Below, one piece after another: positions 61,413 through 63,851 of a stretch of 64,000 nt of DNA (the stretch's first letter is position 1; each line of letters starts with the position of its first letter). Made by a program: the position numbers and the translations under genes. The stretch is taken from contig NZ_BBYM01000014.1 of NCBI RefSeq assembly GCF_001570405.1, positions 85,316-149,315 of the forward strand. The letters run 5' to 3'. This stretch comes from Microtetraspora niveoalba (GTDB taxonomy: Bacteria; Actinomycetota; Actinomycetes; Streptosporangiales; Streptosporangiaceae). Below the pieces are notes generated by a model that did not search any database, was not told where the DNA came from, and saw only the letters and a list, made by a program, of their open reading frames with translations.

Positions 61413-62228
61413 GTGACTCGCGTAGCCCTGTGCCAGATCCCGATCTCCCCTGACCCGAAGGCGAACCTCGAAGCCGCCCGCGAGGCGCTGGCGGAGGCCC
61501 GGGACGCCGAGCTGGCCGTGTTTCCCGAATCGACGCTGACCCGTTTCGGCCGGGGGGTGGCCGAGGCGGCCGAGCCGCTGGACGGCCCGTTCGTGACCGG
61601 GCTGGCCGAGGCGGCGCGCGAGTTCGGGACCGCCGTCATCGCCGGGACCTTCGAGCCCGGGGACGGCCGCGTGCGCAACACCGCCGTCGCGATCTCCGAG
61701 GACGGCGAGCTGAGGGCCGCCTACCGGAAGATCCACCTCTTCGACTCGTTCGGCGCCCGCGAGTCCGACCTCGTCCTGGCGGGTGACGTCCCCGTGGTCG
61801 TCGAGCTGGCCGGGCTCCGCGTCGGTCTGATCACCTGTTACGACGTGCGTTTCCCCGAGCTGGCCAGGGCGCTGGTCGACGCGGGGGCGGACACGTTCGC
61901 GGTCATCGCCGCGTGGGGGGCCGGGCCCATGAAGGAGGAGCACTGGGCGACCCTCGTCCGGGCCCGCGCGATCGAGAACACCACATGGACGGTCGCGGTC
62001 GGCCAGGCGCCCAACCCCGCAGCCTCGGACGGCTTCGGCGTCGGCCGGAGCATGCTGGTCGACCCCCTCGGGGTCGTACGGCACGACCTCGGCCCCGGGC
62101 GTGCCGTGCTGACGGGGGAGATCGACCTGGCGCTCGCCGCGCAGGTGCGCGGGGCGGTTCCCGCGCTGTCGCACCGGAGGCCGGACATTTTCTCCCGCCC
62201 CGCCGGGGAGACGGCGGCCGGATCGTAA
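61413..62228 (+). CDS. Nitrilase-superfamily amidohydrolase
   Basis: From the GTG at 61413 the 271-residue product has the complete catalytic triad: Glu39 (LAVFPESTL), Lys106 (AYRKIHLFD) and Cys142 (LITCYDVRFPELARAL). This fits omega-amidase/2-oxoglutaramate-amidase or N-carbamoyl hydrolase relatives. A divergent class I/II aminotransferase would suit the glutamine transaminase plus omega-amidase pair, an inference from order. The stop lies 11 bases from the right end of the IS200/IS605-type element. Confidence 0.9.
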   Translation: MTRVALCQIPISPDPKANLEAAREALAEARDAELAVFPESTLTRFGRGVAEAAEPLDGPFVTGLAEAAREFGTAVIAGTFEPGDGRVRNTAVAISEDGELRAAYRKIHLFDSFGARESDLVLAGDVPVVVELAGLRVGLITCYDVRFPELARALVDAGADTFAVIAAWGAGPMKEEHWATLVRARAIENTTWTVAVGQAPNPAASDGFGVGRSMLVDPLGVVRHDLGPGRAVLTGEIDLALAAQVRGAVPALSHRRPDIFSRPAGETAAGS

Positions 62229-62238
62229 ACTGTCGGTC

Positions 62239-62357
62239 TTGACATCCTCCCCCTAAAGGAGGGGGATTCCCACGGTCGCCCGTAGGCCTTCCTGCTTCAC
62301 CGCCGGTTGCCCGCTCGGAGGTCTCCGTTGAGGTCTTACACCAGCTCCACAGGCGTT
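62239..62357 (-). ncRNA. Probable omega (guide) RNA scaffold of the TnpB element
   Basis: In TnpB systems the guide RNA comes from the tnpB 3' end through the right end of the element, and the guide is the adjoining host DNA. Here 117 bases follow the tnpB stop and end in GTGGGAATCCCCCTCCTTTA then GGGGGAGGATGTCAA, the hairpin and terminal layout known for this RNA. Guide would be the minus-strand bases from 62238 down, GACCGACAGTTTACGATCCG, in the nitrilase 3' end. Inference by analogy. Confidence 0.6.
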
Positions 62358-63224
62358 TTACCTCTCCGCCAGCCCGGCGGCGAGGATGTTCTTCGCGGCG
62401 TTCACATCGCGGTCATGGGACGCGCCGCAGGCACACTCCCAGGTGCGGACGTTCAGTGGCATCGTGTCCTGCAAGGCGCCACACGCCGAGCACAGCTTGG
62501 ACGAGGGAAACCAACGGTCCACGACCACGAGTTCCCGCCCGTACCAGGCCGCCTTGTACTCCAACGCCGACCGCAGTTCCCGCCACGACGCGTCAGAGAT
62601 AGCGCGTGCCAGCGTGTGGTTTCTCACCATGGTGCGGACGGTCAGGTCCTCGATCACGACCGTTTGGTTCTCACGGACGAGACGAGTCGACAGCTTGTGC
62701 AGGAAGTCACGGCGGCGGTCGGCGATTCGGGCGTACACGCGGGCGACCTTCAGACGGGCCTTGGCCCGGTTCGCGCTGCCCTTTGCCTTGCGTGCGAGTG
62801 CCCGCTGCGCCTTGGCCAGCTTCCGCCGGTCGGCCCGCTCATGCCGGGGGTTGGTCACCTTCTCCCCAGTGGAGAGCGTGACGAGCGCGGTAATCCCAGC
62901 GTCCACGCCCATCCGGTTGTCTGTCGGGTCGAGCGGGCGGATCATCTCCTCCACGAGGATGGATACGAACCACCGGCCTGCGCTGTCGCGGGAGACGGTC
63001 ACCGTGGACGGCTCCGCTCCCTCGGGGAGGGGGCGCGACCACACGATGCGCAAGGGCTCGCTCATCTTCGCCAGGGTCAGGGTGCCGTCGCGCCAGCGGA
63101 ACGCCGAGCGGGTGTACTCCGCCGACGCCCGCGACTTCTTCCGGGACTTGAAGGTGGGGTAATCGGCCTGCCCGGGGGTCGGATAGAAGCGGTACATGTA
63201 TGCCCGCTTCACGATCTGCGCCAT
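62358..63224 (-). CDS. tnpB: TnpB with an internal N-terminal deletion
   Basis: The 288-residue product is shorter than the usual 370-400. After MYRFYPTPGQAD the chain jumps straight to YPTFKSRKKSRASAEYTRSA, a block that normally lies about 90-100 residues in; about 80 residues of the N-terminal WED/REC region are missing in frame. The RuvC part is intact: Asp108 (MGVDAG), Glu192 (VVIEDL), the zinc ribbon CSAC...CACG and Asp273 (HDRDVNAAK). TnpB is an RNA-guided nuclease, but without the REC domain it should not bind guide or target normally, so it is either decayed or altered. Confidence 0.85.
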   Translation of the reverse strand: MAQIVKRAYMYRFYPTPGQADYPTFKSRKKSRASAEYTRSAFRWRDGTLTLAKMSEPLRIVWSRPLPEGAEPSTVTVSRDSAGRWFVSILVEEMIRPLDPTDNRMGVDAGITALVTLSTGEKVTNPRHERADRRKLAKAQRALARKAKGSANRAKARLKVARVYARIADRRRDFLHKLSTRLVRENQTVVIEDLTVRTMVRNHTLARAISDASWRELRSALEYKAAWYGRELVVVDRWFPSSKLCSACGALQDTMPLNVRTWECACGASHDRDVNAAKNILAAGLAER

Positions 63225-63392
63225 GCCTCACATATTAGTAATCGATCAGTTGAGATTCGTACGTATGTTCGCACGTTCGGCGTGTGTTCGTGCGGCGGTT
63301 CGCCTTGCGGCGAATCGCCTACCCCTGCCCTGCTCCGCATGGAGTCCGATTCCTCCCCCGCCTGAAGACGGGGGTTTCCTCGGAGGTTTCTG

Positions 63393-63851
63393 ATGACCGA
63401 GCCGGGACCCAGGACGCCGATGCAGAAGGTGATCCCGCCGCGACTGCTCGTGCCGTACCTGTCGGGTAAGCGGACGATCGTCTCCGGGTACGTGTACCGG
63501 GTGCGGGACTGCGACCGGCTGACCACGCCGACGGCCCTGATCGGCGCCCTGGACCTGCGGTTCGAGGGGTCCGACCTGGTGCCCGGGGTGCCCGAGCTGT
63601 ACATCATGCGCTGGCTGGCGCGCGACACCGACCGCTACGTGGTCCCGTACGGCCCGCACATGGGCGGCGACTGGAACGATGCACCGCCGTTCGCGGGGAA
63701 CGGGTTCACCACGTCCGGGGACGGCGCCGTGCCGCAGTTCCACACGATGCCCATGCCGATCCCCGCCGGGGCCGAGATCATCCACCTGACGGGGAGCGGG
63801 GAACGTGTCTTCGCCCGCTACGACGGCCTGTCCTGGCGTCCGGCCGCGTGA
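63393..63851 (+). CDS. Hypothetical protein
   Basis: The 152-residue product starts at an ATG 3 bases past the approximate IS left end. It reads PRLLVPYLSGKRTIVSGYVY, PELYIMRWLARDTDRYVVPY and PIPAGAEIIHLTGSGERVFA: a compact, mostly beta-strand-like acidic protein without signal or membrane segment. No family was recognised. The IS end removes any normal upstream promoter, so expression may depend on the IS or come from a distant promoter. Stop overlaps the tiny ORF at 63848 (GTGA). Confidence 0.65.
   Translation: MTEPGPRTPMQKVIPPRLLVPYLSGKRTIVSGYVYRVRDCDRLTTPTALIGALDLRFEGSDLVPGVPELYIMRWLARDTDRYVVPYGPHMGGDWNDAPPFAGNGFTTSGDGAVPQFHTMPMPIPAGAEIIHLTGSGERVFARYDGLSWRPAA

What the first reader, a model, noticed from the sequence alone, without database searches (positions are those of the whole stretch)
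62358..63224. TnpB lacks its N-terminal recognition region but keeps the whole RuvC site and its RNA end
The N-terminus keeps the family opening (MYRFYPTPGQA) and jumps in frame to YPTFKSRKKS, losing about 80 residues, while the three acidic RuvC residues and the zinc ribbon are intact and the right end still looks like a guide-RNA scaffold. An in-frame clean deletion with an open catalytic domain is unlike random decay, which usually shows stops or frameshifts. It could be a recent lesion, or a minimal TnpB with a changed function (a separate N-terminal part supplied in trans, or RNA binding only).
Basis: partly seen in the sequence, partly recalled or inferred. Interest (0 to 1): 0.7.

Follow-up and report, generated by a model that had tools for sequence, protein, structure and literature searches.

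The report
Broken copy of transposon nuclease TnpB
A small jumping-gene remnant in an actinobacterium has lost the part of its RNA-guided DNA cutter that recognises the target, and the evidence points to one ordinary deletion in a stranded copy rather than a new kind of enzyme.

Summary
Window 62361-63224 (-) encodes a 288-aa TnpB. Against full-length relatives (368 aa, up to 90% identical) exactly 240 bp / 80 codons are missing: nearly the whole helical REC insert between WED strands 1 and 2. The RuvC D/E/D, Cys4 site and 3' omegaRNA scaffold remain. The element is 62239-63392, inserted cleanly 3' of TCAT; three sister genomes hold the empty site.

A minimal TnpB with changed function is not supported. 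The short form occurs once: 0 of the 80 best relatives share it (71 open and full-length, 9 otherwise broken), and only the window spans the junction among 150 listed matches from 341 family genomes (capped list). The remaining protein diverges ordinarily, which fits a recent loss. Three of the five ISDra2 TAM contacts in the lost stretch are essential. No separate REC piece and no Y1 transposase were found in this genome. Internally deleted tnpB copies are in print (PMC7290912). AlphaFold suggests the WED barrel may still close, so RNA binding without cutting is not excluded.

The parts
62239..63392 (-). whole IS200/IS605-type, tnpB-only (IS1341-like, name recalled) element, 1154 bp, left end at the high coordinate
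   Evidence: empty sites of three sister genomes match the window flanks up to 62238 and from 63393, no target duplication
62361..63224 (-). tnpB with REC deletion, 288 codons (stop codon 62358-62360)
63161..63164 (-). deletion junction (240 bp / 80 codons missing here; split point ambiguous by 2 nt)
   Evidence: GGCC just before both break points in 3 of 8 relatives
62901..62903 (-). RuvC D108 (GVDAG)
   Evidence: invariant column; alignment to ISDra2 TnpB
62649..62651 (-). RuvC E192 (VIEDL)
62406..62408 (-). RuvC D273 (HDRDVNAA)
62427..62492 (-). zinc ribbon, Cys 245, 248, 264, 266
62239..62357 (-). right end / predicted omegaRNA scaffold, ending ...GTCAA
   Evidence: covarying consensus fold, window keeps 33 of 34 pairs
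62219..62238 (-). flank that would serve as guide; identical to the sequence next to TCAT at the empty site of three sister genomes
63225..63392 (-). left end with subterminal hairpin ACCCCCGTCTTCAGGCGGGGGAGG
   Evidence: conserved in the relatives aligned
63393..63396 (-). target-adjacent motif TCAT (read on + as ATGA, start codon of the next gene)
   Evidence: TCAT at 50 of 81 left ends sought by regular expression (3 TCAC, 28 not located); empty sites

Best explanation
A single, recent 240-bp in-frame deletion, perhaps between short GGCC-containing repeats, removed nearly all of the REC domain from a tnpB in a stranded tnpB-only IS200/IS605-type element. Shown: the deletion, its limits, its uniqueness among the relatives examined, the intact ends, and no Y1 transposase match in the genome. 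Inferred: the protein can no longer read the TAM or hold the guide-target duplex, so it does not cut; the element is a defective copy. It may still make an omegaRNA and perhaps bind it.
For: Clean 240-bp gap, GGCC before both break points in 3 of 8 relatives and at one only in the other 5. The lost residues cover nearly all of the REC helices predicted at 17-48, 54-66, 71-75 and 78-98 in full-length L034; many nearly invariant residues lie there. PMC10097598 (passages read): ISDra2 REC is residues 13-116, inserted between WED strands 1 and 2; Y52A, K76A and Q80A abolish and S56A and F77A reduce cleavage. All five positions align inside the lost stretch. Short form seen once. Nine of 80 relatives are broken in other ways, so decay is not rare. 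Empty site in the 3 other genus genomes held and no Y1 transposase match in this genome. PMC7290912 section 3.3 (read) describes tnpB copies lacking 173 nt from position 146 or 151, and copies lacking 463 nt, among disrupted forms.
Against: No second lesion: the window departs at 2 of 149 columns conserved at 95% or more (median of 72 rows 3), and dN/dS against relatives is like that between intact copies. That fits recent loss, but also retained function. The cut falls close to the domain edges, and AlphaFold still builds the WED strands (mean pLDDT 72.3; blocks of residues 31-100 at 78-89).
Confidence: 0.88

Rival explanations
1. REC-less TnpB kept for RNA binding only: WED and RuvC still fold, hold the omegaRNA made from the right end, and act as a sink, processing factor or regulator without TAM-dependent cutting.
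For: AlphaFold keeps the WED strands; Foldseek's best match is still ISDra2 TnpB 8h1j; in ISDra2 the omegaRNA scaffold is bound by WED and RuvC (PMC10097598 passages); scaffold pairs kept; no extra lesions.
Against: Found once; no sign of selection for the short form; RuvC site intact, unlike the RuvC-inactivated TldR repressors (PMC13418256 passages); without REC, DNA recognition is expected to fail; the Foldseek fit is loose (rmsd 8.5).
Confidence: 0.05
2. Split system: an N-terminal REC piece or a full-length TnpB complements the short protein in trans.
For: One full-length TnpB frame (384 aa, 55% identical over residues 22-288) exists in the genome at G000:C13.
Against: The only REC-like match in the genome at E up to 1 is inside that same full-length protein, 46% identical there; ISDra2 TnpB works as a monomer (PMC10097598 passages).
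Confidence: 0.02
3. Assembly or sequencing artefact: the strain really carries the full-length gene.
For: Draft of 98 contigs; reads were not available.
Against: Only one copy of this close family in the assembly (next best 55%, plus fragments), so collapse between copies is unlikely; no N around the junction and the contig runs on in the window on both sides; an exact 240-bp error with clean flanks is unusual (judgement).
Confidence: 0.05

Closest known systems
Full-length tnpB-only IS200/IS605-type elements of actinobacteria, e.g. L034 (contig labelled Steroidobacteraceae), L038, L042
   Same: same kind of ends and boundaries, same right-end fold, 86-90% protein identity in the shared part for these three
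   Different: those keep the 80-residue REC stretch
ISDra2 TnpB (8h1j, 8bf8)
   Same: WED, RuvC and zinc-ribbon layout, catalytic residues
   Different: has REC, residues 13-116; active nuclease
TldR, TnpB-like nuclease-dead repressors (PMC13418256, passages seen)
   Same: a TnpB relative likely unable to cut
   Different: TldRs have an inactivated RuvC and keep DNA binding; here RuvC is intact and the DNA-reading part is gone; no partner gene was sought or shown
Internally deleted tnpB copies of Halanaerobium hydrogeniformans (PMC7290912, section 3.3 read)
   Same: tnpB with internal deletions
   Different: several copies there, deletions of 173 or 463 nt; here one copy, 240 nt, in frame
IscB/IsrB, which lack a REC domain (statement in PMC10097598, passage seen)
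   Same: RNA-guided RuvC protein without REC
   Different: Cas9 ancestors whose bulky omegaRNAs do that work; the right end here is like that of its REC-bearing relatives

Membership tests
TnpB of IS200/IS605 (RNA-guided endonuclease) | sequence profile of the family | tested here: met
   NCBIfam guided_TnpB 285.6 bits, cut-off 100; Pfam OrfB_IS605 and Cas12f1-like_TNB over cut-off; the stricter NCBIfam IS200_TnpB model scores 294.5, under its cut-off of 425
TnpB of IS200/IS605 (RNA-guided endonuclease) | RuvC D/E/D and zinc ribbon | tested here: met
   D108, E192, D273, C245, C248, C264, C266 in invariant columns
TnpB of IS200/IS605 (RNA-guided endonuclease) | REC domain with TAM contacts | tested here: not met
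   residues 21/22-100/101 missing, the five REC contacts of ISDra2 align there; so filed as a defective descendant, not as a working TnpB
TnpB of IS200/IS605 (RNA-guided endonuclease) | omegaRNA scaffold at the 3' end | tested here: met
   33 of 34 consensus pairs kept; 18 of 34 pairs with changes on both sides over 30 sequences; transcription not tested
TnpB of IS200/IS605 (RNA-guided endonuclease) | RNA-guided cleavage | not testable with these tools
   needs an assay
IS200/IS605-type element (tnpB-only) | precise insertion 3' of a fixed short motif, no target duplication, hairpin ends | tested here: met
   three empty sites, TCAT motif, hairpins
IS200/IS605-type element (tnpB-only) | Y1 transposase available in trans (tnpB-only elements carry none) | tested here: not met
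   0 PF01797 matches at E up to 0.001 in G000; 3 in G001, 0 in G002, 25 in G003; a draft genome, so absence is not certain; filed as a stranded element
TldR | RuvC inactivated, DNA binding kept | tested here: not met
   RuvC residues present, REC absent

The most novel reading that the evidence does not exclude
A natural REC-less TnpB whose WED barrel closes directly across the deletion and which still binds its omegaRNA, giving a minimal guide-RNA-holding protein that cannot read a TAM: an RNA sink or regulator, or a nuclease acting only on single-stranded targets.
Probability: 0.05. Interest if true: 0.6.

Novelty: new member of a known kind. Interest (0 to 1): 0.18.

Why it matters
As a defective copy it matters little: one more example of a tnpB gene decaying in an element that seems stranded without a transposase. 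It is a neat natural domain-deletion construct, because the REC insert is removed almost at its edges. It could be used to test whether WED plus RuvC alone hold an omegaRNA.

Tried and rejected
Conserved short form: searched for and not found. Limits: one search kept the best 80 of 560 relatives; one search scored at most 7 candidates per genome and its list was cut at 150 rows (hand count), so weaker or more distant short forms were not examined. REC piece in trans: not found. Known RNA family over 62200-63450: no Rfam match at E up to 0.1. Partner ends for solo fragments (L139-L144): no clear opposite end and no strong tnpB match within the 3-kb stretches fetched; L143 keeps 30 bp like the tnpB 3' end beside its right-end fragment; left there. 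Post-deletion selection could not be measured, since no sister copy shares the deletion. Literature searches: TnpB with REC domain/truncated/WED/RuvC (6 papers), TnpB with inactivated/N-terminal/domestication/IS605 (none), TnpB with TldR, REC-less wording (15 of 111 listed, unrelated), pseudogene/truncated/degenerate. No listed title or abstract start described a REC-less TnpB, in these searches only; most subscription papers are not held.

One search was my mistake: the ORF was translated on the wrong strand and its result is not used. In one search I printed only 60 rows of the table; the printed alignment of 11 sequences was cut in the middle, with the junction, both ends and the right end in the printed part. 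Alignment A1 holds the window and 71 intact relatives; the 9 broken ones were dropped. A3 holds the window and 29 right ends that I chose from the better matches, most cut at a fixed length. In one search, 50 of 81 left ends had TCAT, 3 TCAC and 28 were not located; tnpB starts were assumed for some loci. In one search, 51 of 81 were scored (window included) and 30 dropped.

Full report
What is there. The gene lies on the minus strand, 62361-63224, and gives 288 residues. It matches the TnpB models of Pfam and NCBIfam, but the N-terminal HTH_OrfB_IS605 model only over its first 18 of 47 positions and under the cut-off, and the strict NCBIfam IS200_TnpB model under its cut-off. The best relatives in one-genome-per-species contigs are about 368 aa long and up to 90% identical. 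Aligned as DNA with ten relatives, the window lacks one block inside the gene (printed alignment cut in the middle). For eight relatives the best split lies after nt 61-63 with 240 bp missing. Three of the eight (L034, L036, L037) carry GGCC just before both break points, which would suit slippage or repair at short repeats; the other five have it at one end only. It is a plausible cause, not a proven one.

What was lost. In the predicted full-length relative L034 (mean pLDDT 76.7) strand 3-13 is followed by helices 17-48, 54-66, 71-75 and 78-98 and then strand 114-118. The missing residues, 21/22-100/101, are thus nearly all of the helical REC insert between WED strands 1 and 2. For ISDra2 TnpB, PMC10097598 (passages read) gives REC as 13-116 and names TAM contacts Y52, S56, K76, F77 and Q80 in REC; alanine at Y52, K76 or Q80 abolished cleavage, at S56 or F77 reduced it. 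In the alignment these five fall on L034 residues 54, 58, 78, 79 and 82 (the offset of two between chain and paper numbering is my inference), all deleted. Two of the five are not the same residue in L034 (S78 and V79). The WED contacts T123 and N124 fall on window T38 and R39, which remain.

What was kept. RuvC D108, E192 and D273 and the four cysteines sit in invariant columns. The right end folds with its relatives: 34 pairs, 97.1% of cells paired, 18 pairs with changes on both sides, above all 500 shuffles (shuffles ignore relatedness, but sliding the partners by 1-3 columns drops pairing to 37-56%). The window keeps 33 of 34 pairs. The short protein is predicted with WED-like strands (3-13, 33-38, 42-45, 48-51, 72-79, 85-95, mean pLDDT 72.3, pTM 0.53). 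Its best Foldseek hit is ISDra2 TnpB with TM-score 0.61 and rmsd 8.5, so the overall arrangement is not reliable.

The element. The three other genomes of the genus that are held carry the flanks joined without the element. This fixes it at 62239-63392, 3' of TCAT on its own strand, with no target duplication. An 18-base part of the flank that would act as guide is found once in each of the four genomes; in the three sisters it is the empty site beside TCAT, and there 20 of 20 bases agree. So the insertion is specific to this species among the four, or was lost cleanly in the others. No Y1 transposase match was found in this genome, so the copy is probably stranded. The genus is probably Microtetraspora: L008 of genome G003 and L046 (Microtetraspora sp. 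NBRC 16547) read alike in the printed alignment; this is inference.

Is the short form conserved? Not as far as searched. Of the 80 related loci kept (best of 560), 71 are open over the whole length, 3 show frameshifts (L045, L055, L105), 4 have one stop (L075, L081, L097, L109) and 2 have no in-frame match to the 5' part (L087, L106); none has this internal gap. In 341 genomes of the family, 189 had a match at E up to 1e-60, and of the 150 rows printed (hand count) only the window spans query 1-288; the others begin at 12-19, as full-length genes do. Further rows were not printed, and at most 7 candidates per genome were scored. The genus search shows no second short copy spanning the junction.

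Is it under selection? The window departs from strongly conserved columns at 2 of 149 places; the median of 72 rows is 3 and the worst 7. Against six relatives dN is 0.07-0.09 and dS 0.42-0.62, like distant intact pairs. These numbers cover mostly the time before the deletion (inference), so they say that the loss is recent or that constraint remained, and cannot tell which. Uniqueness, the loss of residues essential in ISDra2, and the breakage of 9 in 80 relatives make a recent lesion far the likelier.

Precedent. PMC7290912 section 3.3 (read; other passages) lists tnpB copies in Halanaerobium missing 173 nt from position 146 or 151 and others missing 463 nt, five copies of the latter type plus a more deteriorated one. 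Internal tnpB deletions are therefore known. TldR proteins (PMC13418256, passages) are the opposite case: RuvC inactivated, binding kept.

Verdict. Ordinary defective copy, confidence 0.88. The boldest reading left open is a REC-less omegaRNA holder, about 0.05.

Noticed in passing
window 63382-63395, and left ends of related loci: Read on the + strand, the element's left end finishes in an SD-like GGAGG six bases before the ATG that its TCAT target motif supplies. Of 51 left ends scored, 45 carry an SD-like motif there and 33 adjoin an ORF of 250 or more codons starting at that ATG, against 123 of 407 other ATGs in the flanks (30 of 81 loci dropped; loci share descent). The family may insert at start codons and bring its own ribosome site. 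One literature search listed four papers; only titles and abstract starts seen, none on this.
   Followed up: partly
window 62219-62238 and 63393-63851: The insertion sits exactly between the conserved upstream region (TAAACTGTCGGTC) and the start codon of the gene at 63393, so that gene is cut off from its original leader.
   Followed up: no
L139-L144 (G000:C18, C4, C37, C22): Left-end-like (two) and right-end-like (four) fragments, 76-92% identical to this element, without a clear tnpB in the 3-kb stretches: remnants or small non-autonomous relatives.
   Followed up: partly
L034 617-1554: A second stretch 81% identical to this element lies upstream of the first on the same contig, which is labelled Steroidobacteraceae although most other hits are actinobacteria; the contig may be misbinned.
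   Followed up: no
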